Positions 3,541 through 55,652 of a DNA stretch of 57,199 bases are shown here, piece by piece; the first letter of the stretch is position 1, and every line of letters begins with the position of its first letter. The translations under genes were made by a program, and so were the position numbers. A model generated the notes under the pieces. It did not search any database. It was not told the origin of the DNA and worked only from the letters and a program-made list of their open reading frames with translations. The stretch is from Bacteroidaceae bacterium (GTDB lineage: Bacteria > Bacteroidota > Bacteroidia > Bacteroidales > Bacteroidaceae), in contig JAFZWQ010000002.1 of assembly GCA_017617235.1 (NCBI GenBank), positions 1-57,199 of the forward strand. Reading direction: 5' to 3'.

Positions 3541-3702
3541 ACAGTCTTTGAGCTATAATGAGTTTTTGGCGTTTGGCCCACATCTGCTTTTTAGCTCGCC
3601 ACCGTGGCTCTTCGGATTGCTCTTTCCTAAAGCTCGGTTGGCACGCCCTAAGGCGTTCTTGATGTAAATTTCCGTTGACTCAAATCATTGAGTCCTTCAA
3701 TT
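3541..3702 (-). ncRNA. Structured leader or small RNA candidate upstream of the amidohydrolase gene
   Basis: Directly downstream of a consensus minus-strand promoter, the non-coding stretch holds several hairpin-forming inverted repeats. These are GACTCAA/TTGAGTC around ATCA (3677-3694), ACGCC/GGCGT around CTAA (3643-3656) and GCCAC/GTGGC around one base (3598-3608). There is also a CTTT/AAAG pair near 3621-3632. Minus-strand frames here lack a usable start codon, although one reads a basic, Trp-rich peptide ending at 3539. The region could be a long 5' leader, a cis-regulator or an independent small RNA. The remainder of 3412-3540 shows nothing I recognise. Confidence 0.4.
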
Positions 3703-41518: not shown

Positions 41519-43560
41519 AAATGAGAAAGGCATTCACCACATTATTGCTGTTCCTCGTATGGCATCTTTCCATAGCTCAGGAACTCCCCACGTTACGTGT
41601 ACTGGCTATTGGCAACTCGTTTTCCGAGGATGCTGTGGAACAGAATTTGTGGGAATTAGGACATGAATCTGGCTTCAATTTCGTCATTGGAAATGCATAC
41701 CGTGGCGGACAAGGTCTTGCTTCACATTGGACGGTTGTCAGCCAAGGTGCAAAAGCCTTCGAATACCGAAAAGTCGTAAACGGCGAGCGCACGAACCATA
41801 AGGAAGTTAGTCTCGACAGCATACTCACTGACGAAGCATGGGATGTGGTCACGCTGCAGCAAGTAAGTCAAGATGCCGGTCTTTATGCGACCTACGACCC
41901 TTATATTCAAGATCTCCTAAACTATGTGCGTGCCAGGGTGACAGGGAAGAACGTACGTTACGGCTTCCACCAGACATGGGCCTATGCACGCAATTCTACC
42001 CACTCTGGTTTTGCTAACTATGGTGGTGACCAGGAACGCATGTACGGCAATATCATCGAAACTGTTGGGCGCATTCTTACGGAACACCACGAACTGTTGT
42101 TCGTCATCCCCACCGGTACTGCCATCCAGAATGCACGTACCACTCCCTTGGGCGACCATCTGAATCGCGACGGTTATCATCTCGACAAGACCATCGGCCG
42201 CTACGTTGCCGCCTGCACGTGGCTCGAAGCCCTCACTGGCCATTCACCTGTGGGACTCAACTATCGTCCAACAGGTATCAGCGCCACCATTGCCGCCATA
42301 GCACAACAGGCAGCCCACGATGCCATCCTTACACCCGACCACATTACACCTCAAGATTCATCCTTCCAGTACATCGACACATGCCGAATTTCAGTCTTCG
42401 GCTCCTCTGTTGCACATGGTGTGGGCGCTACGGACCGTCACGGCTATGCATGGCACTATGGTCAACTACTCCAGGAACGTTATGCTGCGAAACAAAGTCT
42501 CTGGCCTTTCACGTTGTCCGACATCAGCGTGGGCGGCGACACCACGGGCAAGTTGTTAGCGCGTTACAACGACCTGATTTTCGACCTAGGACGCTACGTC
42601 ATCATCGCCCTCTCCCTGGGCAACGAGGGCATTCACCACAGCAGCCGCCAGCAAGCTATTGTCCGCCAATGGCACGATAACATGCAGAAGCTCGTCCAAA
42701 TGGCACGTGCCGATGGCAAGATACCAGTGGTCACAAATAACTATGGTCGTGCTGATTTCAATGCCAAAGATTACGCCTGTGTACGCCAACTGAATCTCCA
42801 AATCCACGAATGGGACGTGCCCAGCATCAACCTTTTGGGCGCTGTCGACGACGGACAAGGTCATTGGCCAAAGGGTTACGAAGCCGATATGGGACATCCC
42901 AATACCCAGGGACATCGTGAAATGATGTACACCCTGCCTCCCTCGCTTTTCGATGCACTGGCCTCAGGTAAGCCATTGCCCCAGCGCGACATGAGCCACG
43001 AACTCATGCTCAATCGCGGCAACACGCTAGCGTTTACACCAGAGGGAACCATCCACCCCTTCGCAGTTAGCCTCACCCTTCGTGGCAGCGACCGTGGGCG
43101 TGTGCTAACCCTAATAAGCAACGGACGTAAAGCATGGATTGGCATCAATCGCGACCATAAAGCCTACTACCGTTCTTCTATGGGCGACAGTTTGGTTAGC
43201 TCCATTCCTCTCGAGGAACATGCACGCCACACCATCACCCTGAGCCACCGATATGCCACCAGCCATACCCTATTCTTTGTAGATACTGAATGTATGGAAA
43301 CCGATGAACGTCTACGCCTCAGCCGCATTACCGTGGGTGATGCCGCCAGTCGCAACGTTCGTCGTCGGCTGTCCGAGCTCTTTTTCTGGCGTTCTGCCCT
43401 CAATGCCGACGAGGCAAATGCTCTGGCTCGTGGTCGCATGCTGCGTTCCAGCCTTGAGATTTATACCCCATTGGACGAAGCCAAACGCGACAGCCTCCCC
43501 AACCTGGCACAAACCCTCAACACACTCCGTTTCGTCCCCGCAAAAGCCAAACAACGCTAA
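41515..43560 (+). CDS. Exported double esterase: DUF4886 plus SGNH hydrolase
   Basis: The 681-residue protein has a signal peptide (ending 'WHLSIAQE'). The N-terminal DUF4886 module (about 25-270) opens with 'VLAIGNSFSEDAVEQNLW'. A second SGNH/GDSL-type module (about 285-490) opens with 'ISVFGSSVAHGVGATD' and has a late 'DMGHPNTQGHRE', holding the Asp and His expected of the triad. A C-terminal beta-sandwich (about 500-670) looks LamG-like. Such enzymes deacetylate sugars. The start overlaps the GH2 stop by four bases, so the two are coupled and may act together on an acetylated beta-galactoside. Confidence 0.85.
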   Translation: MKMRKAFTTLLLFLVWHLSIAQELPTLRVLAIGNSFSEDAVEQNLWELGHESGFNFVIGNAYRGGQGLASHWTVVSQGAKAFEYRKVVNGERTNHKEVSLDSILTDEAWDVVTLQQVSQDAGLYATYDPYIQDLLNYVRARVTGKNVRYGFHQTWAYARNSTHSGFANYGGDQERMYGNIIETVGRILTEHHELLFVIPTGTAIQNARTTPLGDHLNRDGYHLDKTIGRYVAACTWLEALTGHSPVGLNYRPTGISATIAAIAQQAAHDAILTPDHITPQDSSFQYIDTCRISVFGSSVAHGVGATDRHGYAWHYGQLLQERYAAKQSLWPFTLSDISVGGDTTGKLLARYNDLIFDLGRYVIIALSLGNEGIHHSSRQQAIVRQWHDNMQKLVQMARADGKIPVVTNNYGRADFNAKDYACVRQLNLQIHEWDVPSINLLGAVDDGQGHWPKGYEADMGHPNTQGHREMMYTLPPSLFDALASGKPLPQRDMSHELMLNRGNTLAFTPEGTIHPFAVSLTLRGSDRGRVLTLISNGRKAWIGINRDHKAYYRSSMGDSLVSSIPLEEHARHTITLSHRYATSHTLFFVDTECMETDERLRLSRITVGDAASRNVRRRLSELFFWRSALNADEANALARGRMLRSSLEIYTPLDEAKRDSLPNLAQTLNTLRFVPAKAKQR

Positions 43561-43735: not shown

Positions 43736-45862
43736 TCACTTCATTAGGACCTTGCGACCATTGACGATGTACAATCCCTTTCTGGGTTTGCCAACGATAC
43801 GACGCCCGGAAAGGTCGTAAATATCATCAGAAATGGATGACTGCGAGGCAATGGATTCAATAGCATTGGTTCCCTCCACCAACTGCAATTTTACTTCGTC
43901 CAGGAAGAAACGATTGGCTGTGCTGAAGGTAATTCTGACACTACCTGTACCAGTAACATTTGCTTTGAACTCGCCCCATTCGCCCTTAGGCAGGGTGATG
44001 TAAGTGGGAGCGACTGTACCGCCCTGTGCAGAGAGAACCATTTGGGTGTCATCTGCTATGGTATTCCATGCAGCAGCACGGAAAGAGAGAACAGCCTCGC
44101 CGTTTAGAACAATAGCAGGTGTTGTGGCACTTCCTGCCATACTGCTGATGCCAAACTTACCACATTCATCAGCACCCTTTCCTGCAGTTGCTTCCCAACC
44201 TTCATTATCATAGACAATAGTACCATTGCCAGCATTTCCACTCCAGATAGCATCATTTCCGCCACGTCCCATACATTGGTCGAAGGATTCATAGAAAATG
44301 ACGTCACCCTTGGCCACAGGAATATTCACCTGTGTGGTATCTTGTGGCAGCGGAGTATCAGCCACCTTAAAAATGAGACTGATTGTACCATCGCCATTCT
44401 TGACAATCTTCTTTACATCTATATTCTTGCTGGTCCCGCTGAGTGTCTTCAGCGATTCAATAGCGTTCTTTCCATTACCATAAAGATGGCTGGAACGGGC
44501 ATAGGAAGTAATTTTGGAACCGTCGGCAGTAAGTATGCAGGCGCGCTTCTTACTTTGCGTATTATTAACGATGTTCTGTTTCCAATAAGAGGAACTGTAT
44601 GCAATACGCGTAACAAGGACTCCATTGCCAAAACTTGAGGGATACCACGTTCCTGCCTGGCGGTTTTCGAAGATAAACGTCTCGGTACTGCTGTTGCGGA
44701 TAATATAGGCCGAACCTTCTGCAAGACCTAGTGGAGACTGCAGAGTGATAGTATCGGCGTTGCCAATCTCCTTCATATCCAACCATCCCAGGTAGCTCTT
44801 CTCATAGGCAGTATAGCCCATAGGAAAACGGCATTCCGAATTGACATAGGCACCAGCATCCATGATGGACCAATAACCAAAACCATCATCGTTACCATAA
44901 TTATAGTCCGTACAATAGAAATCGGGCAATCCCAGCGCATGACCAAATTCATGACAGAAAACGGACATGCCCATAAGACGATTGCCCAAGAGTTCATTAC
45001 CAATAAAGAAAGAGTTGAAATGAACGCCATCATAATTGCCACCATAACTGTCTTCAACATCGTCCCACTCGCAAGGCCAAAGGAGTTTGGAGTTAGCCGT
45101 TGATTCCTGTTCCGTAGCTTCACCTTTACCCGCATAAAGCATAGCAAGCAAAGGAACTCCCTTCTTGTGGTTACTGTCGCCAGCTGGTACTACATATTTC
45201 GAGAAATCAATTCCCAACTGTTCCTTGGCAGCCTTTGTAACATGCAAGGGGAGTTTATCTAGATTTTTGTCGTTTCCATAACTATCGTTGGTACCATAAT
45301 AGGCGGCAACTGTATCCAAAGTAACAATACCAACCACATCGAATGTAGGAACGAACTGACCACCGCTCTGGGCCTTGAAGTAGTCGCGAACAGAACCAGC
45401 CGTACCCGATTCATCGTGATAGCCCTCCTCGTTGTACATTCGAGTCATCTTAGCCACAGTGGTGCTGGCCTTGAACTTGGTATCCTTGAACTGAACCATT
45501 ACTACAGGAATAGTGAATTCGCCAATGCTTGGACAAGAGCCCATACTCATTTTACCCTTTTTACCAAGCCCATCGGTAGTGGAACTGGTAATGGCGCGAC
45601 GCGCAGCACGAGTCGCAATTCGCGACTGACGCATGGTTTCGAGCACCTCTTCCTCAGCTTTAACATATTTGTCGCCATCTATGGAATAGCATGTACCATC
45701 AGCAGCCTGAAACCAATGCATATGCTCATCACCAACACGCTGAACAAGCACTTGCGTTCCATCGGAAAGAGTTATGGTTGACCATAAGCCTGGTTTGGAA
45801 GGAACAGCCATTAAAATTGTTGCCATTAAGGTTAATGACAGGGATAAAATCAATCTTTTCAT
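43736..45862 (-). CDS. Secreted M6-family zinc metalloprotease with sorting tail
   Basis: The 708-residue protein has a signal peptide ('LILSLSLTLMATILMAV'), a propeptide-like region and an M6 catalytic domain. Its zinc motif is 'CHEFGHALGLPDFY' (His304, Glu305, His308). The C-terminal part (about 500-660) is beta-sandwich ('DVIFYESFDQCMG'), followed by the sorting-type tail 'IYDLSGRRIVGKPRKGLYI'. M6 peptidases (immune inhibitor A type) degrade host or dietary proteins outside the cell. It is a single gene, divergent from iorA, with a -7 box 25-32 nt upstream. Confidence 0.92.
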   Translation of the reverse strand: MKRLILSLSLTLMATILMAVPSKPGLWSTITLSDGTQVLVQRVGDEHMHWFQAADGTCYSIDGDKYVKAEEEVLETMRQSRIATRAARRAITSSTTDGLGKKGKMSMGSCPSIGEFTIPVVMVQFKDTKFKASTTVAKMTRMYNEEGYHDESGTAGSVRDYFKAQSGGQFVPTFDVVGIVTLDTVAAYYGTNDSYGNDKNLDKLPLHVTKAAKEQLGIDFSKYVVPAGDSNHKKGVPLLAMLYAGKGEATEQESTANSKLLWPCEWDDVEDSYGGNYDGVHFNSFFIGNELLGNRLMGMSVFCHEFGHALGLPDFYCTDYNYGNDDGFGYWSIMDAGAYVNSECRFPMGYTAYEKSYLGWLDMKEIGNADTITLQSPLGLAEGSAYIIRNSSTETFIFENRQAGTWYPSSFGNGVLVTRIAYSSSYWKQNIVNNTQSKKRACILTADGSKITSYARSSHLYGNGKNAIESLKTLSGTSKNIDVKKIVKNGDGTISLIFKVADTPLPQDTTQVNIPVAKGDVIFYESFDQCMGRGGNDAIWSGNAGNGTIVYDNEGWEATAGKGADECGKFGISSMAGSATTPAIVLNGEAVLSFRAAAWNTIADDTQMVLSAQGGTVAPTYITLPKGEWGEFKANVTGTGSVRITFSTANRFFLDEVKLQLVEGTNAIESIASQSSISDDIYDLSGRRIVGKPRKGLYIVNGRKVLMK

Positions 45863-45998: not shown

Positions 45999-46030
45999 TT
46001 TGGTATTGCACACGATTTACACTATCTTTG
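45999..46030 (+). promoter_or_regulatory. Bacteroidota-type promoter of the aromatic-acid module (iorA)
   Basis: TTTG (45999-46002) is followed after exactly 20 nt by TATCTTTG (46023-46030). This matches the consensus and lies 39 nt before the iorA start. Confidence 0.8.
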
Positions 46031-46069: not shown

Positions 46070-47716
46070 ATGACTGAGAAACGACTATTATTGGGCGACG
46101 AAGCCATAGCGTTGGGAGCACTTCACGCAGGACTTTCTGGCGTGTATGCCTATCCTGGCACTCCCTCAACGGAAATCACAGAATTCATTCAAGGTAGCCC
46201 TCTGGCCAAGGAGCGTAACGTTCATAGCCGCTGGTGTACCAACGAGAAGACGGCTATGGAAGCCGCTCTGGGTATGTCCTTCATGGGCAAGCGTGCTTTG
46301 GTTTGTATGAAGCACGTAGGTTTGAACGTTTGTGCCGACCCCTTCGTGAACAGCGGTATGACGGGTGTAAACGGTGGTGTTGTGGTACTCGTTGCCGATG
46401 ACCCCTCTATGCACTCTTCTCAGGATGAGCAGGACAGCCGTTTCTACGGTAAGTTCGCTTTGATTCCCACGTTCGAGCCCTCGAACCAGCAGGAGGCCTA
46501 TGATATGATGGAGGCTGCCTTCGATTATTCCGAGCAGCAGTGTCTGCCCGTCCTGATGCGTGTCACCACCCGTATGGCACACTCCCGTGCTGTGGTACAG
46601 GTAAAGGAAGAGGCTCGTCCTGAGAACGAGATGAACTACAATGCCGTTGCTGCTAACTGGGTTCTCCTGCCCGCCAATGCCCGTAAACGTAACGATAAGG
46701 TTACTGCTCAGCAGGCACAATTGGAAGAGGATGCAGCTAAATCAAAGTTCAATAGCCTCACCCTTAACGGGAAGGCTCCCTTAGGAATCATCGCCTCTGG
46801 TATAGCATACAATTATGTTCAGGAAACGCTTAATACTCTTCCCCTCGGGGAGGCAGGGAAGGGGGTTCCTGTTTTGAAGATTTCCCAATATCCTTTGCCC
46901 AAGCGCCTGGTACGCCAACTGTTGGACAGCTGCGAGAAGGTGATGATTGTAGAAGAGGGTCAGCCCTTCATCGAGGAGCAGGTTCGTGGTGTCTTCGAGA
47001 GCCAGAATATCCTGGGTCGTCTCACTGGCGAACTTCCTCGCACAGGTGAATTAACTCCCGACTGCGTAAAAAAGGCGCTTTCCGAATACTCCAATTATTC
47101 TGAGAATTCAGAGTACTCAGAAATTCCTGCCTTAGTGGCTGCTCGTCCTCCCCAGCTCTGTCAAGGTTGCGGTCACCGCGATGTATATACCGCATTGAAC
47201 GAAGTGCTGAAGGAGTACGAGAATCCTCGTGTCTTTGGTGATATCGGTTGCTACACACTTGGCTTCCTGCCCCCATACCGTGCTATTCATTCTTGCGTGG
47301 ATATGGGTGCCAGCATCACAATGGCCAAGGGAGCTTCTGATGCAGGTCAGTGGCCAGCTGTTGCTATCATTGGCGACTCTACCTTCACCCACAGCGGTAT
47401 GACCGGTCTCTTGGATGCTGTCAACGAGAAGGCAAACATTACTGTTATCATCTCTGACAACCTCACTACCGCTATGACGGGTGGTCAGGATAGCGCCGGT
47501 ACCAACAAGTTCGAGGCCATCTGCCTGGGTCTTGGTGTAGAGCCCGAGCATCTGCATGTGGTAGTTCCCCTGCCCAAGAATATGCCCGAGATTACACGCA
47601 TCATCCGCGAAGAAATCAACTACAAGGGCGTTTCTGTCATCATCCCTCAGCGCGAATGCATCCAGACCTTCAAACGTCACGCTAAAGAGAAGAAGGCTGC
47701 TGCCAATTCGAAATAA
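46070..47716 (+). CDS. iorA: Indolepyruvate ferredoxin oxidoreductase, alpha subunit (IorA), lacking the ferredoxin domain
   Basis: IorA is the TPP-binding subunit that interconverts arylpyruvates and arylacetyl-CoA with ferredoxin. The 548-residue protein has the pyrimidine-binding N-terminus ('GLSGVYAYPGTPSTEITEF'), 'RPPQLCQGCGHRDVY' (Cys364, Cys367) and the TPP region 'IIGDSTFTHSGMTGLLDAV'. Archaeal IorA carries a C-terminal ferredoxin domain with two 4Fe-4S clusters; here the protein ends at 'RHAKEKKAAANSK' with no cysteine cluster. Two low-complexity segments, 'LPLGEAGKGV' (about 257-266) and 'SEYSNYSENSEYSE' (about 338-351), are encoded by microrepeats and keep the frame. It is the first gene of the module, with its own promoter. 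Confidence 0.92.
   Translation: MTEKRLLLGDEAIALGALHAGLSGVYAYPGTPSTEITEFIQGSPLAKERNVHSRWCTNEKTAMEAALGMSFMGKRALVCMKHVGLNVCADPFVNSGMTGVNGGVVVLVADDPSMHSSQDEQDSRFYGKFALIPTFEPSNQQEAYDMMEAAFDYSEQQCLPVLMRVTTRMAHSRAVVQVKEEARPENEMNYNAVAANWVLLPANARKRNDKVTAQQAQLEEDAAKSKFNSLTLNGKAPLGIIASGIAYNYVQETLNTLPLGEAGKGVPVLKISQYPLPKRLVRQLLDSCEKVMIVEEGQPFIEEQVRGVFESQNILGRLTGELPRTGELTPDCVKKALSEYSNYSENSEYSEIPALVAARPPQLCQGCGHRDVYTALNEVLKEYENPRVFGDIGCYTLGFLPPYRAIHSCVDMGASITMAKGASDAGQWPAVAIIGDSTFTHSGMTGLLDAVNEKANITVIISDNLTTAMTGGQDSAGTNKFEAICLGLGVEPEHLHVVVPLPKNMPEITRIIREEINYKGVSVIIPQRECIQTFKRHAKEKKAAANSK
46837..46870. repeat. GC-rich microrepeat inserted in frame in iorA
   Basis: The element CTTCCCCTCGGGGAGG plus GGGAAGGGGGT is related to the inverted pair at 12796-12922. 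It encodes 'LPLGEAGKGV' in a likely surface loop between domains of IorA. Confidence 0.7.
47081..47125. repeat. GAATACTCC-type microrepeat in frame in iorA
   Basis: Diverged units of TCCGAATACTCC / TATTCTGAG / TACTCAGAA encode the low-complexity stretch 'SEYSNYSENSEYSE', just before the 'RPPQLCQGCGH' domain. Confidence 0.6.
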
Positions 47717-47749
47717 CGAAATATCGTCATAACGTAATAACGAAGAATA
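47709..47749. repeat. AACG-type spacer microrepeat, iorA-iorB junction
   Basis: The spacer holds GAAATATCG and ATAACGTAATAACGAA. Almost the same sequence occurs at 55176-55214, and a related one at 48324-48371, all between genes of the aromatic-acid module. Confidence 0.7.
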
Positions 47750-48322
47750 ATGAAGACCGATATAATTCTATGTGGTGTGGGGGGCCAAGGAATCCTCTCA
47801 ATCGCTACAATCATTGGCGAAGCAGCCATGAACGAGAACCTATATATCAAGCAGGCCGAGGTGCACGGAATGTCTCAGCGAGGCGGCGACGTTCAGTCGA
47901 ACTTGCGCATCTCCAGCAACCCAATTGCCAGCGACCTGATTGCCAAAGGCGGAGCTGATGTCATCATTTCTATGGAGCCAATGGAAGCTCTTCGCTACCT
48001 GCCTTACTTGAATAAAGAAGGTTGGGTTATTACCTCAAGCACTCCTTTTATCAATATACCGAATTATCCTGAGTTAGAGGGTATTAAGAAAGAGCTCAAT
48101 AAACTTCCTCACGTCATTACTATCGACATAGAGCAACTGGCAAAGGAAAACCAAATACCCCGTTCAGCCAACGTCATTCTGCTGGGTGCAGCTCAAAAGG
48201 CTCTTGGTCTCGATTACGCTACGTTGGAGAATGCCATCCGCCGCGTCTTCGGTCGCAAAGGCGATGCCGTAGTAGAAGCCAACATCAAAGCTCTGGCATT
48301 AGGCCGCGAGGCACAGAAATAA
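47750..48322 (+). CDS. iorB: Indolepyruvate ferredoxin oxidoreductase, beta subunit (IorB)
   Basis: The 190-residue protein is the gamma-type subunit of 2-oxoacid:ferredoxin oxidoreductases. It opens with 'DIILCGVGGQGILSIATIIG' and has 'EVHGMSQRGGDVQSNLR', both diagnostic. It pairs with IorA, 33 nt upstream. The spacer between them is a microrepeat also seen before the aminotransferase and ACT genes. Confidence 0.94.
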   Translation: MKTDIILCGVGGQGILSIATIIGEAAMNENLYIKQAEVHGMSQRGGDVQSNLRISSNPIASDLIAKGGADVIISMEPMEALRYLPYLNKEGWVITSSTPFINIPNYPELEGIKKELNKLPHVITIDIEQLAKENQIPRSANVILLGAAQKALGLDYATLENAIRRVFGRKGDAVVEANIKALALGREAQK

Positions 48323-48323
48323 A

Positions 48324-48371
48324 GTCGTTATAACGTCATAACGAAATGTCGAAATAACGAAATATCGTAAA
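48324..48371. repeat. AACG-type spacer microrepeat, iorB-aminotransferase junction
   Basis: Diverged units of the type ATAACGTCATAACGAA, followed by GAAATAACGAAATATCG, fill the spacer between iorB and the aminotransferase gene. Confidence 0.65.
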
Positions 48372-48374
48372 AGA

Positions 48375-49682
48375 ATGGAAGCAACTCCTATAAAGAAAGA
48401 GATTGTGGATGGACTGATCGCCAAGATGGGCATTCAGGATTTTGCTAAGGCAACCATCCGCGAGGTGAAGCAGGTGGCTGCAATGGCCGAGAAAGAATCA
48501 GGCGTTGAGTTTATTAAGATGGAGATGGGAATTCCCGGATTACCTGCCGCTGAGGTGGGTGTAAAGGCGCAGATTAAGGCGCTGCAAGACGGTATTGCCC
48601 ACTCTTACCCCGATATTCAGGGTTACCCCGAGCTGAAGAAGCAGGCATCACGCTTTGTGAAGGCATTCATTGGTGTGGACATAGCTGCTGAGGGTTGTGT
48701 GCCTGTTACAGGCAGTATGCAGGGAACATTTGCTTCGTTCCTGACCTGTTCACAGGCCTGCAAGCAGAAGGATACGGTGCTGTTCATCGACCCGGGCTTC
48801 CCCGTTCAGAAGATGCAGCTGCAGGTACAGGGCGTGAAGTACGAGACGTTCGATGTCTATGACTTTCGTGGCGATAAGCTGCGTGCCAAACTGGAGAGTT
48901 ACCTCCGTAAGGGCAACATCTGCGCCATCGTCTATTCCAACCCCAACAACCCATCGTGGGTCTGTCTGACGGAGAGTGAGCTCCAGACGATTGGCGAGCT
49001 GGCCACTCAGTACGATACCATCATCATGGAAGACCTTGCATACTTTGCTATGGACTTCCGTCAGGATTTGAGTGTTCCGTTCGAGGCTCCCTATCAGCCA
49101 ACCGTTGCCCGCTATACTGATAATTATATGCTGCTGATCAGCGGATCAAAGGCATTCAGCTATGCCGGTGAGCGAATCGGAGTGGTGTGCATCAGCGATA
49201 AGCTGTTCCACCGTCATTACGACGATCTGGCTGCCCGCTACGAGGGTCTGCCCTTCGGATTGGTATTCAGCACGCGTATGCTCTATGCCCTCAGCAGCGG
49301 CACCAGTCATTCTGCCCAGTATGCGCTGGCCGAGATGTTCCGTGCTGCCTGTGATGGCGAATACCGTTTCCGCGATGATATAAAAGTCTATGGCGAGCGT
49401 GCCAAGAAACTGAAGGATATCTTCTGCAAACACGGCTTCTATATTGTATATGATAAAGACGGTGACCAACCCGTTGCTGACGGCTTCTATTTCACCATCG
49501 GTTATCCAGGTATGACCAGCGGACAATTGGCTCAAGAACTGATGTACTATGGAGTGAGTGCCATTTGCCTGATTACCACAGGCTCACATCAGGAAGGACT
49601 GCGCGTGTGCACTTCGTTCATCGAAGACCATCAGTATGAGCAGCTGGAAGAGAGAATGGCAATCTTTGAAAAGAATAACTAA
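48375..49682 (+). CDS. PLP-dependent aminotransferase, class I/II
   Basis: The 435-residue protein has 'PVTGSMQGTFASFL', 'IVYSNPNNPSWVCL', 'IIMEDLAYFAMDF' and the PLP lysine in 'SGSKAFSYAGERIG'. Position between IorAB and the rest of the module suggests that it interconverts aromatic amino acids and arylpyruvates; the amino donor is not known. It could also act in either direction of the pathway. It is preceded by a microrepeat spacer. Confidence 0.88.
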   Translation: MEATPIKKEIVDGLIAKMGIQDFAKATIREVKQVAAMAEKESGVEFIKMEMGIPGLPAAEVGVKAQIKALQDGIAHSYPDIQGYPELKKQASRFVKAFIGVDIAAEGCVPVTGSMQGTFASFLTCSQACKQKDTVLFIDPGFPVQKMQLQVQGVKYETFDVYDFRGDKLRAKLESYLRKGNICAIVYSNPNNPSWVCLTESELQTIGELATQYDTIIMEDLAYFAMDFRQDLSVPFEAPYQPTVARYTDNYMLLISGSKAFSYAGERIGVVCISDKLFHRHYDDLAARYEGLPFGLVFSTRMLYALSSGTSHSAQYALAEMFRAACDGEYRFRDDIKVYGERAKKLKDIFCKHGFYIVYDKDGDQPVADGFYFTIGYPGMTSGQLAQELMYYGVSAICLITTGSHQEGLRVCTSFIEDHQYEQLEERMAIFEKNN

Positions 49683-49724
49683 TAAGGCTCATAGGGCCCA
49701 TTATTAATTTATTAACTAACAACA

Positions 49725-50870
49725 ATGAAACAAAAAACAATTTTCGCGAAAGCGACGCTGGCAGTGGCGTTAGCCATTTTCAGCAGCACAGCGGCCATGG
49801 GACAAAGGCCACGGGTTGACGACGGAACGTCGGGAGTGAGCGACTCTACCGCCACCAAAAGTAAAGGTAAAAAGGTTTTAGAAACACTTGCAGATCACAT
49901 CCAACTACATGGATATGCACAAGGCGGTTACTGTTACACCAACCGCAGTAACACCAACACAAACTCCTTCGAACTTAAACGAGTTCTTTTCTGGGCAAAC
50001 GCCCAAATCACCGACCGTTGGTCGTTCCTATTCATGCACGACTTCTCGAGTGTCGTTCAGGAATTCTACACAGACTATCGCATTACCAAGAACAAGGCCC
50101 TAACCGTCAGGGTAGGACAATTCAAGAATGGTCTGTCACTCGAAAATCCCCTCTCCCCCACTTCTATGGAAGCCATCGACGTCTATTCGGAAGGCGTAAC
50201 TTTCCTTTCTGGTTGCGGCAGCGACCCCCTGATGGGTGTACAATATGGTCGTGACCTGGGTTTGGCCCTGTTTGGCGAAACCAATGATGCCAAACTACGT
50301 TACGAGCTGCAGGTGATGAACGGACAAGGCATCAACAAGAAAGACGGGAACAATTTCAAAGATATTATTGGAAGAATAGAATACCGCCCCGTAAAAGGAT
50401 TGAACCTTGTGGCTACCGGCCAGATAGGCCGTGGGCACTCGGTTGCTGACCCCATTGCAGGAACAGGAACGGGCGGTTCAGTATATAACCCCACTATCAA
50501 TAAGGGCGACGATTATAAGCGCAACCGCTGGACAGCGGGATTTGACTATAAATGTAAGAAAATCAAGTTGCACGGCGAATATCTGGAAGGCTATGATGGC
50601 AACGTTACCAGTCGCGGAGGATATCTGACAGGCTCCGTACCCCTGGGGCGCCCGGATTTGGAGTTCGTGGGTTCGTATGACTATTTCAACTTCAACACCA
50701 CACTCGGCTACGATCAGCACAAGGCCATTGCCGGCATTCAGTACTGGTTCTACCAAAAGTGTCGCGTGCAGTTGCAATATGTCTATAAGAGTGCCTACAC
50801 AGCTGGTGGTGTATTTGTGCGCGACAACAGTCACGCCATCATGTGTCAGTTGCAAGTACGCTTCAATTAA
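49725..50870 (+). CDS. Outer-membrane porin-like protein (phosphate-selective porin O/P-like)
   Basis: The 381-residue protein has a signal peptide ('ALAIFSSTAAMGQ') and strands typical of 16-strand porins ('IQLHGYAQGGYCY', 'FSFLFMHDFSSVVQ' type alternation, 'YRPVKGLNLVATGQIG'). It ends in a terminal aromatic-Asn ('MCQLQVRFN'). It likely lets small anions through the outer membrane. The setting suggests an aromatic acid as cargo, which is inference. It lies 42 nt after the aminotransferase gene. Confidence 0.75.
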   Translation: MKQKTIFAKATLAVALAIFSSTAAMGQRPRVDDGTSGVSDSTATKSKGKKVLETLADHIQLHGYAQGGYCYTNRSNTNTNSFELKRVLFWANAQITDRWSFLFMHDFSSVVQEFYTDYRITKNKALTVRVGQFKNGLSLENPLSPTSMEAIDVYSEGVTFLSGCGSDPLMGVQYGRDLGLALFGETNDAKLRYELQVMNGQGINKKDGNNFKDIIGRIEYRPVKGLNLVATGQIGRGHSVADPIAGTGTGGSVYNPTINKGDDYKRNRWTAGFDYKCKKIKLHGEYLEGYDGNVTSRGGYLTGSVPLGRPDLEFVGSYDYFNFNTTLGYDQHKAIAGIQYWFYQKCRVQLQYVYKSAYTAGGVFVRDNSHAIMCQLQVRFN

Positions 50871-50912
50871 CTGGGGGCATTAATCAGAATTCCTAATTCG
50901 TAATTATACATC

Positions 50913-52439
50913 ATGTTTCTAAAAGTTATATTAACCATTATCTTTCTGGTCGTAATGGTTGGTGTGGGAGTGTACTCCCGTAAGCAGGCCAGTAGTGTAG
51001 AAGGTTTTGTACTGGGCGGACGTGCCGTAGGTCCTTGGTTGACGGCTTTCGCCTTTGGAACCAGTTATTTCTCTGCCGTAGTATTTGTGGGTTATGCCGG
51101 TCAGTTTGGTTGGAAGTATGGTCTTTCTAGCGCTTGGATTGGTATCGGCAATGCCATCATAGGTTCGCTCTTAGCATGGATTATCTTAGGTAGGCGTACC
51201 AAATTAATGACCCAGCACATAGAGAGTCGCACCATGCCCGATTTCTTCGGAACCCGCTTCAGCGATCAGGGTTTGCGTGTAGCAGCTTCCATCATCGCCT
51301 TCGTGTTCCTGATTCCCTATACAGCCGGTGTGTATAGCGGTATCTCGCGTCTCTTCGAGATGGGCTTCGATATCCCCTATGAATACTGTGTGATTATCAT
51401 GTCCATACTGACGGCTGTCTATGTGATTATTGGCGGCTACAAGGCAACTGCCATGAACGACTTCATTCAGGGCATCATCATGCTCTTCGGTATCGTTGCT
51501 GTCATCATTGCCGTGCTGAATGCACAAGGCGGCCTAACAACAGCCGTCGAGAAACTGGCTGCCATTTCCTCTGATGCTAATCCTGCCGTGAACGGTGGCT
51601 TTGCCTCGTGGTTCGGTCCTGATCCTTGGGGATTGCTGGGTGTGGTTATCCTGACCTCTCTGGGTACCATGGGATTGCCTCAGATGGTAGGTAAATTCTA
51701 CAGTATTACCGATGAAAGCGCCATCAAGCGCGGTACCGTCATCAGCACTATCTTCGCCTTTATCGTGGCAGGCGGTTGCTACTTCCTGGGTGGTTTCGGT
51801 CGTCTGTATGAACCCGTCATCAACGAGGCAACCGGCAAGATAGCCTTCGACTCTATTGTACCTGCTATGCTCATCACATTGCCCGATATCCTTATCGCCC
51901 TGGTGGTACTGCTGGTGCTGAGTGCTTCTATGTCGACATTGGCATCTTTGGTGCTGACCTCCAGTTCAACCATGACCCTCGACCTGATCTATCGCGATAA
52001 GAAATCCCTGCCCGGTGAGGTGGAAGAAGGAACCATCGACGATATCGTGGCCGAGAAGATAGAGCGTCGTAAGGTAGTGGTAATGCGTGTGCTGATAGTA
52101 TTCTTCATCGTCATCTCCCTGTTGATAGCCCTGAATCCGCCCACCTTCATTGCCCAACTGATGGGTATCTCTTGGGGTGCTTTGGCTGGTGCCTTCCTGG
52201 CTCCCTTCATGTTGGGTCTCTACTGGCGTGGTGTTACCCCCATTTCCGTATGGGCATGCTTCATCTGGGGCGTAGGCCTTACCGTTGTGAACATGCTGTT
52301 GGGCAACCCCATCAATCCCATCAACTGTGGTGCCATTGCCATGCTGGGAGGATTCCCCGTGGTGCTGCTGGTTAGCCTGTTCACCAAGAAACTACCTGCT
52401 GCCGATGTAAGCCGTATGTTCGAGTGCTATAAGAAATAA
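50913..52439 (+). CDS. Sodium:solute symporter (SSS family)
   Basis: The 508-residue protein is hydrophobic with about 13 membrane helices. It begins with 'VILTIIFLVVMVGVGVYSRK' and has 'FVLGGRAVGPWLTAFAFGTS' with the SSS signature glycine and serine pattern, and 'YVIIGGYKATAMNDFIQGII'. It imports a solute with sodium. The solute is not shown by sequence; the neighbours suggest a carboxylate such as an arylacetate. It lies 42 nt after the porin gene. Confidence 0.9.
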   Translation: MFLKVILTIIFLVVMVGVGVYSRKQASSVEGFVLGGRAVGPWLTAFAFGTSYFSAVVFVGYAGQFGWKYGLSSAWIGIGNAIIGSLLAWIILGRRTKLMTQHIESRTMPDFFGTRFSDQGLRVAASIIAFVFLIPYTAGVYSGISRLFEMGFDIPYEYCVIIMSILTAVYVIIGGYKATAMNDFIQGIIMLFGIVAVIIAVLNAQGGLTTAVEKLAAISSDANPAVNGGFASWFGPDPWGLLGVVILTSLGTMGLPQMVGKFYSITDESAIKRGTVISTIFAFIVAGGCYFLGGFGRLYEPVINEATGKIAFDSIVPAMLITLPDILIALVVLLVLSASMSTLASLVLTSSSTMTLDLIYRDKKSLPGEVEEGTIDDIVAEKIERRKVVVMRVLIVFFIVISLLIALNPPTFIAQLMGISWGALAGAFLAPFMLGLYWRGVTPISVWACFIWGVGLTVVNMLLGNPINPINCGAIAMLGGFPVVLLVSLFTKKLPAADVSRMFECYKK

Positions 52440-52453
52440 TGTAAACCAAATTG

Positions 52454-52485
52454 TTTGTCCAAACGCAGATTTTGTTGTACTTTTG
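52454..52485 (+). promoter_or_regulatory. Bacteroidota-type promoter before the first phenylacetate-CoA ligase gene
   Basis: TTTG (52454-52457) is followed after 20 nt by TACTTTTG (52478-52485), matching the consensus. It lies between the symporter stop and the ligase start, so the ligase-ACT part can be expressed separately from iorA. It argues for the ligase start at 52518 over 52455. Confidence 0.75.
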
Positions 52486-52517
52486 CATGGGACAAAACCT
52501 TAAACAATAGAAAAAAC

Positions 52518-53825
52518 ATGATTTGGAATCCCAATAAAGAATGTATGAGTCGCGACGAGAGGAGCGCGCTGCAAGGTAAACGTCTGCACAAGATTGTGGA
52601 ATATGTCTACCACAACGTTCCCTTCTATCGCAACAAGTTGCAGGAACTGGATATCCGTCCTGATGATATTCAGACCATTGAGGATATCACAAAACTGCCC
52701 TTCACCACCAAGAAAGACCTCAGAGACAATTACCCCTTTGGCTTGCAGGCAGCTCCGCAGAGTGAGATTATCCGTGTACATGCCAGTAGCGGCACAACAG
52801 GTAACCCCACCATTGTGGGATATACCCGCAAGGATATAGGTGTATGGAGCGAGTGTATGGCCCGCTGTCTGACTGCCTATGGTGTGACACGCGATGATAT
52901 CTTTTCGGTGGCTTACGGCTACGGCTTGTTCACGGGCGGCTTGGGCGCTCACTATGGCGTGGAGCACCTGGGTGCCTCTTGTATCCCTGCAGGAACGGGT
53001 AATACAGAGAAGCATCTGAAACTTATTCGCGACCTGGGTATTACCGGTTTGGCTTGTACCCCCTCTTACGCCCTGTATCTGGCAGAGACAATGGATAAGC
53101 TGGGCATCAAGAAGGAAGACCTGAAACTGCGGGTAGGTGCTTTCGGTGCTGAGCCTTGGACAGAAAGCATGCGTAAGGAGATTGAGGCTCGTCTGGGCCT
53201 GAAGGGCTATAATATCTACGGACTTTCCGAGGTGATGGGCCCCAGCGTCAGCTACGAGTGTCAGATGCAGAACGGCTCTCACATCAACGAAGACCATTTC
53301 TTCCCCGAGATTATCAACCCCGTAACCCTAGAGCCACTGCCTGTGGGACAGACAGGTGAGCTTGTGTTCACTACGCTGACCAAGGAAGGTATGCCCGTAC
53401 TGCGTTATCGTACACGCGATCTCTGTTCTCTGTTGCCCGGCACTTGCGACTGCGGTCGTACCAACGTGCGTATGGGACGTATTCAGGGGCGTTCCGACGA
53501 TATGCTAATCATTCGTGGTATCAACGTATTCCCCTCTCAGGTAGAGAGCGTTATTCTCTCGTTGCCCGAGTTTGCACCTCACTACCTGTTGATTGTGGAT
53601 CGCGTCAACAATCTGGACACCCTGCTGGTACAGGCAGAGCTGCGTCAGGAGGTATTTACCTCTACCTTCGATACACCAGCTGCTGTAGAGGCACTGGAGA
53701 AGAAACTGGCCGCCAAGCTAAAGAGCGTGCTCAGTATCGCCGCAAAGGTTCAGCTGAAGGCTCCTGGTACCATAGAACGTAGTCAGGGCAAGAGTGCTCA
53801 TGTTATAGATAATCGTAAACTCTGA
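52518..53825 (+). CDS. paaK: Phenylacetate-CoA ligase family protein, copy 1 (PaaK)
   Basis: PaaK activates aryl acids with ATP and CoA, giving arylacetyl-CoA and AMP; it can also run the other way. The 435-residue protein starts at ATG 52518 (MIWNPNKECM) and shows the AMP-binding signature 'ASSGTTGNPT', 'YGLSEVMGPSVS', 'RYRTRDL' and a C-terminal 'RSDDMLIIRGINVFPSQVES'. It has its own promoter and is followed by a second, divergent copy 23 nt downstream. Which aryl acid each copy prefers is not known. Confidence 0.9.
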   Translation: MIWNPNKECMSRDERSALQGKRLHKIVEYVYHNVPFYRNKLQELDIRPDDIQTIEDITKLPFTTKKDLRDNYPFGLQAAPQSEIIRVHASSGTTGNPTIVGYTRKDIGVWSECMARCLTAYGVTRDDIFSVAYGYGLFTGGLGAHYGVEHLGASCIPAGTGNTEKHLKLIRDLGITGLACTPSYALYLAETMDKLGIKKEDLKLRVGAFGAEPWTESMRKEIEARLGLKGYNIYGLSEVMGPSVSYECQMQNGSHINEDHFFPEIINPVTLEPLPVGQTGELVFTTLTKEGMPVLRYRTRDLCSLLPGTCDCGRTNVRMGRIQGRSDDMLIIRGINVFPSQVESVILSLPEFAPHYLLIVDRVNNLDTLLVQAELRQEVFTSTFDTPAAVEALEKKLAAKLKSVLSIAAKVQLKAPGTIERSQGKSAHVIDNRKL

Positions 53826-53828
53826 TAA

Positions 53829-53850
53829 TTCATAATTTATAATTCATAAT
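53829..53850. repeat. AT-rich spacer microrepeat between the two ligase genes
   Basis: TAATTCATAATTTATAATTC fills most of the gap between the two ligase genes, and the start codon of the second lies at its end. It resembles the AT-rich class elsewhere in the window. Confidence 0.55.
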
Positions 53851-55168
53851 GAGTGAAAAACATGAGGGGTTGTATTTTAACCCCGAAATCGAAACCATGA
53901 CGAGGGAGCAGATAGAAGCGCTCCAACTCGAAAGATTGCAGAAGACGGTGCGCCACTGCATGAACAACGAGTTCTACCGCAAGAAATTTGCGGAGGCAGG
54001 CATCACACCCGATGATATCAAGACCTTGGCAGATGTCCGCAAGCTGCCTTTCACCACCAAACAGGATTTGCGCGAGACCTATCCCTTTGGAATGTCCTGC
54101 GTGCCTATGAAGGATTGCGTCCGTTTGCATTCCTCCAGCGGAACAACAGGTAACCCCACCGTTATCCTGCATACCAAGAAGGACCTTGACGAATGGGCCA
54201 ATCAGGTGGCTCGTAATCTGTGGATGGTGGGCCTTCGTCCTGATGATGTCTTCCAGAACTCCAGCGGTTATGGTATGTTCACCGGCGGCCTTGGTTTCCA
54301 GTACGGAGCCGAGAAGTTGGGAATGCTGACGGTTCCTGCTGCAGCTGGTAACTCGCTGCGTCAGATTAAGTTCATCAAGGACTTCGGCACTACTGCCATT
54401 CATGCTGTACCTTCGTATATCACACGCCTCCATGAGGTGATGAAGGAGGAAGGTGTAGATCCCCGTCGTGATACCAAGCTGAAAGTGTTGGCCATCGGTG
54501 CTGAACCTCACTCTGAGGAACAGCGCAAGCGCATCGAGGATATGATGGGGGTAAAGGCCTACAACTCTTTCGGCATGAGCGAGATGTGCGGTCCTGGCGT
54601 TGGTTTCGAATGTCCTGAGCAGAACGGTATGCACTTCTGGGAGGACTACTACATTGTAGAGATTGTCAACCCAGAGACATTGGAGCCCGTTCCTGATGGC
54701 GAGATTGGCGAGTTGGTACTCACAACGCTCTGTCGTGAGGCAATGCCCCTGTTGCGTTATCGCACACGCGACCTTACCCGTGTCTTGGGCAGAACCTGTC
54801 CCTGTGGTCGTAACCACGTGCGTATCGACCGCATGAAGGGTCGTAGCGATGATATGATGGTGCTGCGTGGCGTGAATATCTTCCCCATCCAGATTGAGAA
54901 GATACTGATGCAGTTCAGCGAACTGGCCAGCAACTACCTTATCACCCTCACCACCGACGAGGAGAACGACAACATGACGGTAGAGGTCGAATTAGCACAA
55001 CCCACCGACGATTACGCACAGTTGAAAGCGCTGGAGAACGAGATTCGTCGTCGCCTAAAGGACGAAATTCTGTTAACGCCCATCGTCAAGTTGGTTCCCC
55101 TTGGTTCACTGCCTGTCAGCGAAGGAAAAGCCATCCGTGTGGTTGACAAGAGAAAGGTCTATCAGTAA
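53849..55168 (+). CDS. paaK: Phenylacetate-CoA ligase family protein, copy 2 (PaaK)
   Basis: The 439-residue protein has 'HSSSGTTGNPT', 'FGMSEMCGPGVG', 'LLRYRTRDLTR' and 'RSDDMMVLRGVNIFPIQIE', the same family signatures as copy 1. The two copies are clearly different sequences and therefore not a recent duplication. They might activate different aryl acids, for example phenylacetate and indoleacetate; this is inference. It lies 55 nt before the ACT-domain gene. Confidence 0.9.
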   Translation: MSEKHEGLYFNPEIETMTREQIEALQLERLQKTVRHCMNNEFYRKKFAEAGITPDDIKTLADVRKLPFTTKQDLRETYPFGMSCVPMKDCVRLHSSSGTTGNPTVILHTKKDLDEWANQVARNLWMVGLRPDDVFQNSSGYGMFTGGLGFQYGAEKLGMLTVPAAAGNSLRQIKFIKDFGTTAIHAVPSYITRLHEVMKEEGVDPRRDTKLKVLAIGAEPHSEEQRKRIEDMMGVKAYNSFGMSEMCGPGVGFECPEQNGMHFWEDYYIVEIVNPETLEPVPDGEIGELVLTTLCREAMPLLRYRTRDLTRVLGRTCPCGRNHVRIDRMKGRSDDMMVLRGVNIFPIQIEKILMQFSELASNYLITLTTDEENDNMTVEVELAQPTDDYAQLKALENEIRRRLKDEILLTPIVKLVPLGSLPVSEGKAIRVVDKRKVYQ

Positions 55169-55175
55169 TCTCCTC

Positions 55176-55214
55176 GTAATAAAGAAATATCGATATAACG
55201 TAATAACGAAAAAC
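55176..55214. repeat. AACG-type spacer microrepeat, ligase-ACT junction
   Basis: GAAATATCG and ATAACGTAATAACGAA repeat the iorA-iorB spacer almost exactly, although the flanking genes differ. Confidence 0.7.
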
Positions 55215-55223
55215 ATAAGAACT

Positions 55224-55652
55224 ATGACAATCCATCAACTTTCCATTTTCATTGAGAACCGTTCAGGTACGCTCATCAAGGTGTTGGACGCCTTGAAGGA
55301 AGCAAAGATTCAGATTATTGCCTCCACCATTGCCGATACGGCAGAGTATGGTATCTATCGCCTCATCTGCAGCGAGCCCCTGCGTGCTTGCGAAGAACTG
55401 AAGAAGGCAGGCGTGGCTGTTGCTCTTAGCGATGTATTCGCCATCGAGATTGACGACCAACCCGGTCGTGCCGCAGAAGCCGTTAAGGTCTTCAGCGAGG
55501 CTGGCATCAGCATCACCTACATGTACTCTTTCCTGTTGCGCGGCAAGGGCATCCTCATCTTCCGCACCGACGACGGAGAGAAGGCTGCAAGTGTCATCAA
55601 AAACAACAACCTCAAGAGTATCGATGAGACCGACCTTACCCAGTGGGCCTAA
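55224..55652 (+). CDS. Double ACT-domain protein
   Basis: The 142-residue protein consists of two ACT domains: 'IHQLSIFIENRSGTLIKVLD' at the N-terminus and 'VFAIEIDDQPGRAAEAVKV' from about residue 71. ACT domains bind amino acids and regulate enzymes. The position after two phenylacetate-CoA ligases suggests it senses an aromatic amino acid and controls the ligases or IorAB. An earlier in-frame start at 55101 would overlap the ligase gene and is rejected. It is followed by a strong terminator. Confidence 0.9.
   Translation: MTIHQLSIFIENRSGTLIKVLDALKEAKIQIIASTIADTAEYGIYRLICSEPLRACEELKKAGVAVALSDVFAIEIDDQPGRAAEAVKVFSEAGISITYMYSFLLRGKGILIFRTDDGEKAASVIKNNNLKSIDETDLTQWA

What the first reader, a model, noticed from the sequence alone, without database searches (positions are those of the whole stretch)
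46070..55652. Complete gene set for converting arylacetates to aromatic amino acids (or the reverse)
On one strand lie iorAB, a PLP aminotransferase, a porin, a sodium symporter, two different PaaK ligases and a double ACT-domain protein, with promoters before iorA and paaK and a strong terminator at the end. Seen directly: the families and their order. Known: rumen Prevotella can form phenylalanine and tryptophan from phenylacetate and indoleacetate by reductive carboxylation, PaaK makes arylacetyl-CoA, and Ior enzymes interconvert this with arylpyruvates. Inferred: the genes form a scavenging module with uptake (porin, symporter), activation, carboxylation, transamination and sensing (ACT). 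A fermentative route from amino acids to arylacetates plus ATP is the main alternative.
Basis: partly seen in the sequence, partly recalled or inferred. Interest (0 to 1): 0.7.

Follow-up and report, generated by a model that had tools for sequence, protein, structure and literature searches.

The report
Arylacetate to aromatic amino acid module
A bacterium, probably from the rumen, carries side by side the genes to take up aromatic acids such as phenylacetate, activate them and turn them into aromatic amino acids (or run the route backwards); the core is already known from Bacteroides, but the tight pairing of the activating enzyme with a sensor-like protein, and a relative's swap to a different activating enzyme, are new leads.

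Summary
In detail: eight same-strand genes (iorA, iorB, aminotransferase, porin, sodium symporter, two PaaK-type ligases, ACT-domain pair), promoter matches before iorA and paaK1, and a strong terminator. The linkage is real but not universal: of 201 family genomes 129 have iorA and paaK, 12 iorA only, 6 paaK only, 54 neither; paaK lies in the stretch read at 94 of 175 other iorA loci, in many reshuffled orders. Three results go beyond the finding. (1) All 131 genomes with an ACT relative have paaK, 131 of 135 paaK genomes have it, usually tens of bases away. (2) In 11 of the 12 iorA+/paaK- genomes a CoA-transferase relative follows the aminotransferase, where four genomes of one of those genera have paaK-ACT; none of the 11 has ACT. 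(3) IorA lacks the model's C-terminal part but keeps four cysteines invariant in 165 of 165. Best reading: ATP-driven arylacetate salvage with ACT as sensor on the ligase. Direction is unproven: deleting the B. thetaiotaomicron iorA homologue lowers 4-hydroxyphenylacetate production, and iorA is not enriched where prephenate dehydratase is missing. The core is known, and a biosynthetic role is already proposed in print.

The parts
45999..46030 (+). Bacteroidota -33/-7 promoter match before iorA
   Evidence: such matches lie within 300 nt upstream of iorA in 36 of 163 relatives, 22-51 nt before the ATG in 35 of them, 75 in one
46070..47716 (+). iorA: 2-oxoacid (arylpyruvate):ferredoxin oxidoreductase alpha subunit, 548 aa, without the C-terminal part of the family model; Cys 364, 367, 394, 530 invariant
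   Evidence: (TIGR03336 549 bits, model 2-542 of 595)
47750..48322 (+). iorB: beta subunit, 190 aa
   Evidence: NF005324 312 bits, cut-off 222
48375..49682 (+). class I/II PLP aminotransferase, 435 aa
   Evidence: nearest solved structure 3g0t, 512 bits
49725..50870 (+). outer-membrane porin (Porin_O_P), 381 aa
   Evidence: 29 bits, cut-off 20.9; usually next to the symporter in relatives
50913..52439 (+). sodium:solute symporter (SSF), 508 aa
52454..52485 (+). Bacteroidota -33/-7 promoter match before paaK1
52518..53825 (+). paaK1: PaaK-type (AMP-forming family) arylacetate-CoA ligase, 435 aa from ATG
   Evidence: nearest solved 2y27 phenylacetate-CoA ligase, 446 bits
53849..55168 (+). paaK2: PaaK-type arylacetate-CoA ligase, 439 aa, 46% identical to paaK1
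   Evidence: nearest solved 4r1l, 651 bits
55224..55652 (+). ACT_8 domain-pair protein, 142 aa from ATG
   Evidence: 231 bits, cut-off 23.5; 2f06, 75 bits
55667..55703 (.). intrinsic terminator-like hairpin between the module and a convergent gene
   Evidence: - strand; + strand

Best explanation
An arylacetate salvage module. Arylacetates released by other microbes cross the outer membrane through the porin and the inner membrane with sodium through the symporter (inferred). Two PaaK-type ligases, perhaps for different aryl groups, make arylacetyl-CoA at the cost of ATP to AMP (family knowledge; a Bacteroides counterpart is reported as assayed). IorAB adds CO2 with two electrons from reduced ferredoxin, giving the arylpyruvate (family chemistry, direction inferred), and the aminotransferase makes phenylalanine, tyrosine or tryptophan (inferred). 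The ACT protein senses the amino acid and restrains PaaK, the ATP-consuming step (inferred from its near-obligate pairing with paaK and its absence where paaK is replaced). IorAB is reversible, so with amino acids in excess the same enzymes can release arylacetates.
For: Families and order. Co-occurrence of iorA and paaK in 201 genomes, the window's own included. Eight of 175 other iorA loci keep the exact eight-gene order, and 31 gene strings occur in all, truncated loci included. Symporter orthologue in 72 of 201 genomes, one copy each except two fragments in G147; 66 of the 72 have iorA; 36 of 72 lie within 12 kb of iorA or paaK2, against a rough 1.6% per genome by chance. ACT: 131 of 131 ACT genomes have paaK; 79 of the 82 best ACT hits lie within 1 kb of the best paaK, median gap 31 nt. 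AMP-forming ligation favours CoA-ester formation, an argument also made in print for Bacteroides. Phenylalanine from phenylacetate in the rumen is stated in PMC7356843 (passages); many nearest named relatives are MAGs titled rumen, reticulum or omasum.
Against: Deleting BT0430 lowers 4-hydroxyphenylacetate production in B. thetaiotaomicron, and the same IOR is said to take part in phenylalanine-to-phenylacetate conversion: the oxidative direction is the one measured. The window's genome has its own prephenate dehydratase, a TyrA-like domain and chorismate synthase, so salvage is not needed for prototrophy. iorA is not enriched in genomes without prephenate dehydratase: 15 of 25 against 126 of 176; where TyrA is also missing 12 of 19; at 90% completeness or more 8 of 13. 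In the 80 nearest named loci only 28 hold a paaK in the stretch. Substrates of symporter, porin, ligases and aminotransferase are untested. Related genomes are counted as independent.
Confidence: 0.56

Rival explanations
1. Oxidative disposal: amino acids are transaminated and IorAB decarboxylates arylpyruvates to arylacetyl-CoA, making reduced ferredoxin; the CoA ester is split (by PaaK in reverse, a thioesterase or a CoA-transferase) and arylacetate leaves the cell.
For: BT0430 deletion result (PMC10746243 section 7) and the statement that B. thetaiotaomicron IOR takes part in converting phenylalanine to phenylacetate. The CoA-transferase relative in place of PaaK in 11 genomes would conserve the thioester.
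Against: PaaK-type ligases run towards CoA esters; there is no kinase or ADP-forming synthetase in the window's cluster (neighbours in other loci were mostly not classified and no genome-wide search was made); a sodium symporter normally imports. None of 66 Bacteroidota strains made quantifiable indoleacetate in one survey (PMC13290082 passage), though how many carry iorAB was not seen.
Confidence: 0.24
2. A two-way buffer: no fixed direction; PaaK-ACT gates import when aromatic amino acids are scarce, and IorAB with any CoA-releasing enzyme exports when they are in excess or when ferredoxin must be reduced.
For: Reversible IOR chemistry (family knowledge); the two published indications point opposite ways; two promoter matches could let iorAB and paaK be expressed separately.
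Against: No expression data; no dedicated export or hydrolysis gene in the cluster.
Confidence: 0.14
3. The module handles other acids (for example benzoate-like, arylpropionic or branched-chain acids) and the aromatic labels mislead.
For: Both ligases and IorA score below the curated cut-offs of the phenylacetate-ligase and IOR models, and the symporter reaches no substrate-specific cut-off.
Against: The nearest solved relatives of both ligases are named phenylacetate-CoA ligases; IorB is above its model's cut-off; B. thetaiotaomicron counterparts act on aryl substrates.
Confidence: 0.06

Closest known systems
B. thetaiotaomicron IOR BT0430-0429 with ligase BT_0428 (PDB 4RVN; neighbour by locus number)
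   Same: IorAB with a PaaK2-type ligase; window PaaK2 matches 4r1l (same sequence entry as 4rvn) over residues 9-435 with 651 bits
   Different: Unnamed family genomes with an iorAB-paaK layout (L058-L062, L065-L067) show no aminotransferase next to it, no porin, no module-type symporter and no ACT in the stretch; the window adds a second ligase, transport pair, aminotransferase and ACT. B. thetaiotaomicron DNA itself was not examined
Methanogen and Pyrococcus IOR (phenyl-, hydroxyphenyl-, indolepyruvate; reverse operation proposed in the methanogen)
   Same: Same reaction; biosynthetic reverse use proposed
   Different: Those enzymes carry a C-terminal ferredoxin part (recalled); 164 of 164 full-length relatives examined and the window lack any extension there
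Oxidative Stickland branch for tyrosine in Clostridium scatologenes (HpdDEFG, HpdJ, HpdK)
   Same: Arylpyruvate:ferredoxin oxidoreductase linked to handling of the aryl-CoA
   Different: Uses a phosphotransferase and a kinase, coupled to ATP; the window has ligases of the AMP-forming family
Pseudomonas phenylacetate uptake by permease PhaJ and porin PhaK (recalled; one search was a listing only, nothing read)
   Same: Porin plus permease beside a phenylacetate ligase
   Different: Aerobic ring-cleavage pathway; relationship of the proteins not tested

Membership tests
IOR (indolepyruvate:ferredoxin oxidoreductase) | IorA with TPP/POR domains and equivalog score | tested here: inconclusive
   POR_N and TPP_enzyme_C above cut-off; TIGR03336 is the best model at 549 bits but its cut-off is 651
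IOR (indolepyruvate:ferredoxin oxidoreductase) | C-terminal ferredoxin-like extension of IorA | tested here: not met
   Match ends at model position 542 of 595; no extension in 164 of 164 full-length relatives. That the missing part is the two-cluster domain is recalled
IOR (indolepyruvate:ferredoxin oxidoreductase) | Four cysteines for the proximal [4Fe-4S] cluster | tested here: met
   C364, C367, C394, C530 in 165 of 165; their role as ligands is by analogy, recalled, not tested
IOR (indolepyruvate:ferredoxin oxidoreductase) | IorB partner | tested here: met
   NF005324 312 bits, cut-off 222
Phenylacetate-CoA ligase PaaK | AMP-binding and AMP-binding_C_2 domains | tested here: met
   Both proteins above cut-off
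Phenylacetate-CoA ligase PaaK | Equivalog score TIGR02155 | tested here: not met
   564 and 485 bits, cut-off 646; best model for both, so filed as PaaK-type, not as certified PaaK
Phenylacetate-CoA ligase PaaK | Activity on phenylacetate | not testable with these tools
   Assay needed
Sodium:solute symporter | SSF domain | tested here: met
   173 bits, cut-off 22.8; no substrate-specific equivalog reaches cut-off
ACT_8 domain pair | Pfam model over cut-off | tested here: met
   230.7 bits, cut-off 23.5

The most novel reading that the evidence does not exclude
In Bacteroidota the arylacetate ligase is a two-part, feedback-gated enzyme: PaaK plus a dedicated ACT-pair protein that reads aromatic amino acids and thereby sets the direction of the reversible IOR between salvage and release of arylacetates. 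One lineage has given up this irreversible, sensed entry for a reversible CoA-transferase in the same operon position, changing the energetics of the whole pathway.
Probability: 0.35. Interest if true: 0.65.

Novelty: new variant of a known kind. Interest (0 to 1): 0.45.

Why it matters
4-Hydroxyphenylacetate from gut Bacteroides feeds p-cresol and thrombosis risk (PMC10746243 passages), and phenylacetate feeds host phenylacetylglutamine (papers seen only as listings); phenylalanine from phenylacetate in rumen anaerobes has been a claim since 1965 (reference title). Whether the Bacteroidota enzyme set is a source or a sink of these acids decides how such bacteria should be counted. The ACT-PaaK pairing gives a handle for asking it directly, and the CoA-transferase lineage is a natural comparison with different energetics.

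Tried and rejected
Phenylalanine auxotrophy as proof of the biosynthetic direction: searched prephenate dehydratase and chorismate synthase in 201 genomes and, in the 25 genomes without the first plus the window's own, TyrA. It gave no enrichment of iorA and is reported as evidence against. One genus (g8) lacks both prephenate dehydratase and a TyrA match in 5 of 5 genomes (completeness 87-94%) and keeps iorAB-aminotransferase-CoA-transferase; suggestive, but 7 of the 19 genomes without both enzymes also lack iorA.

Several independent gains of the CoA-transferase: not supported. The 11 IorA form one clade (support 0.999), so this is one event, or transfer of a whole operon, since genus g9 holds both versions.

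Obligate linkage of the symporter: rejected. 34 of 72 symporters lie on other contigs than iorA/paaK2 (drafts) and 2 far away on the same contig. Of 20 symporter regions read (18 away from the module, 2 near it), 16 have a porin relative next to it or one small ORF away (14 of the 18).

Literature: ten searches. No listed paper held both 'ACT domain' and 'phenylacetate-CoA ligase'; this covers only the held open-licence library. Papers searched inside without use: PMC6167468, PMC9007349, PMC9493321 (no hits). Structure prediction, fold search and covariance models of my own were not used.

Strong means best E below 1e-100 for IorA and PaaK (G059 at 4.5e-111 counts as having PaaK; a partial hit in G019 at 1.1e-94 and G109 at 1.2e-13 count as lacking it); symporter E at most 1e-60; ACT E at most 1e-5. 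Five of the 25 genomes without prephenate dehydratase were found by subtraction because the table did not list them; genomes without an ACT match were partly found the same way. Many genomes are incomplete drafts, and many loci are cut by contig ends. In some searches both ligase models gave one label, so PaaK1 and PaaK2 are told apart only. One duplicate locus (L126, same as L013) was dropped. One search kept the best 80 of 580 loci.
Full report
What is there. Eight genes lie on the + strand from 46070 to 55652: iorA, iorB, a class I/II aminotransferase, a Porin_O_P porin, an SSF symporter, two PaaK-type ligases and an ACT_8 pair. The ATG of paaK1 is 52518 and that of the ACT gene 55224. Bacteroidota-type promoter matches lie just before iorA and just before paaK1 (5 in the window, 0.85 expected, none of 100 shuffles reaching 5), and a strong hairpin terminator ends the module. 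The cluster thus reads as two transcription units in one block (inference). Upstream is a divergent M6-type peptidase gene, downstream a convergent gene that reads as dnaK (recognised by eye, not scanned). The window lies in a 2.54 Mb draft genome, 85.5% complete. Its nearest named relatives by IorA are Prevotellaceae/Bacteroidaceae, nearly all MAGs and many titled rumen, reticulum or omasum; one is an isolate, Prevotella sp. OH937_COT-195 (best 80 of 580 loci).

Is the clustering meaningful? Of 201 genomes of the family, the window's own included, 141 have a strong IorA hit and 135 a strong PaaK hit; 129 have both, 12 IorA only, 6 PaaK only, 54 neither (relatives are not independent). Among 175 non-redundant other iorA loci, 94 hold a paaK in the stretch read, and 8 keep the window's exact order of eight genes (in the table these are L069, L070, L083, L092, L094, L100, L109, L110). 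It is not universal: in the 80 named loci iorB is present in 80, the aminotransferase in 64, a paaK in 28, ACT in 24, porin and symporter in 17 each, and the commonest string is iorA-iorB-aminotransferase alone (40 of 175). Thirty-one gene strings occur, among them porin-symporter before iorA, paaK-ACT before iorA and aminotransferase after paaK. Sub-blocks that move but come together again are better evidence of shared function than one frozen order. The symporter orthologue occurs in 72 of 201 genomes, once each (G147: two fragments), 66 of them with iorA; 36 of 72 lie within 12 kb of iorA or paaK2. Away from the module it keeps a porin relative beside it in 14 of 18 regions read.

The ACT protein belongs to PaaK. 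The window's ACT protein finds relatives in 131 of 201 genomes, and all 131 have paaK, while 131 of 135 paaK genomes have an ACT relative (exceptions G004, G039, G059, G086). Of the 82 best ACT hits (149 bits and above), 79 lie within 1 kb of the best paaK, median gap 31 nt. In G022 and G182, which have two separated paaK genes, an ACT gene lies beside each. In G121, G135 and G163, whose iorAB-paaK has no ACT in the stretch read (L067, L060, L066), an ACT gene sits beside the other paaK copy. In the PaaK loci read, ACT is present in 54 of 94; of the 40 without, 24 come from other families of the phylum and 8 have the plain iorAB-paaK layout.

A replacement. Eleven of the 12 IorA+/PaaK- genomes carry, directly after the aminotransferase, a protein of the acetyl-CoA hydrolase/transferase family (Pfam PF13336 and PF02550 over cut-off in the three scanned; best NCBIfam model TIGR03948, butyryl-CoA:acetate CoA-transferase, 285-294 bits against a cut-off of 675, so the acyl specificity is open). 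It stands where four genomes of genus g9 have paaK1-ACT (L048, L201, L202, L203, against L023, L024, L196, L197, L199, L200 of the same genus). The twelfth, G025, has neither in the 16 kb read (L064). None of the 11 has an ACT relative. Their IorA form one clade, so this is a single change or an operon transfer. The step kept in both versions is the link between free arylacetate and its CoA ester; what changes is cost and reversibility, and the ACT gene goes with the costly version. That is the best clue that the ACT protein controls the ligase; it is still inference.

IorA. The TIGR03336 match ends at model position 542 of 595. In 164 full-length relatives, from the family and from other families of the phylum (28 of 148 genomes of the phylum sample had a match, the window's own included), the protein ends within 20 residues of the aligned end, and four cysteines (364, 367, 394, 530 in the window) are invariant in 165 of 165. 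From general knowledge of this enzyme superfamily these would bind the single proximal cluster, and the missing part would be the two-cluster ferredoxin domain; neither was tested.

How it works. The ligases consume ATP to AMP (family knowledge), which favours arylacetyl-CoA; IorAB with reduced ferredoxin and CO2 can then give the arylpyruvate, and the aminotransferase the amino acid. PMC13285125 (section 14 read whole) proposes a biosynthetic role for Bacteroides IOR on this ground, reporting that the colocalised ligase was confirmed as an arylacetate-CoA ligase (figure in a supplement, not seen). PMC7356843 (passages) states that phenylalanine can also be made from phenylacetate, citing Allison 1965 on rumen anaerobes (title seen only). 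Against: PMC10746243 (section 7 read whole) shows that deleting BT0430 lowers 4-hydroxyphenylacetate production, with residual production, and that complementation nearly restores it; the window's genome keeps prephenate dehydratase and a TyrA-like domain on contig 49 and chorismate synthase; and iorA is not more common where prephenate dehydratase is missing (15 of 25 against 126 of 176). I therefore hold salvage as the likelier main role, at moderate confidence, with reversal possible.

Standing. The core is known and its biosynthetic use already proposed. New here, as far as ten searches of an open-licence library show, are the genome-scale ACT-PaaK pairing, the CoA-transferase version, the linked porin-symporter pair and the shortened form of IorA across the sample. 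Substrates are untested throughout.

Noticed in passing
window 3552-3670 (-): SAM-I/IV riboswitch (48.5 bits, gathering 41.1) with a -33/-7 promoter match just upstream at 3739-3709.
   Followed up: no
window 43736-45862 (-): M6-family metalloprotease domain protein divergent from iorA, with a later stretch (520-674) resembling a T9SS surface endonuclease model below its cut-off.
   Followed up: no
window 41515-43560 (+): DUF4886 fused to a GDSL-lipase-like domain.
   Followed up: no
L009 7168-10491 (-): A 1108-aa ORF lies between iorB and the aminotransferase of an otherwise similar module; by eye it looks like a secreted glycosidase, family not tested.
   Followed up: no
L027: A locus with two PaaK genes, ACT and, further on, a CoA-transferase relative, the only one of 12 CoA-transferase loci with both; not examined.
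   Followed up: no
genus g8 genomes (G007, G035, G057, G076, G093): Five of five lack prephenate dehydratase and a TyrA match but keep chorismate synthase and the iorAB-aminotransferase-CoA-transferase operon: candidates for dependence on arylacetates or on supplied Phe/Tyr. Completeness 87-94%.
   Followed up: partly
L029 8128-8886 (-) and other loci: A carbon-nitrogen hydrolase gene lies directly upstream of iorA in this locus, and ORFs of similar length precede iorA in several others (only this one was scanned).
   Followed up: partly
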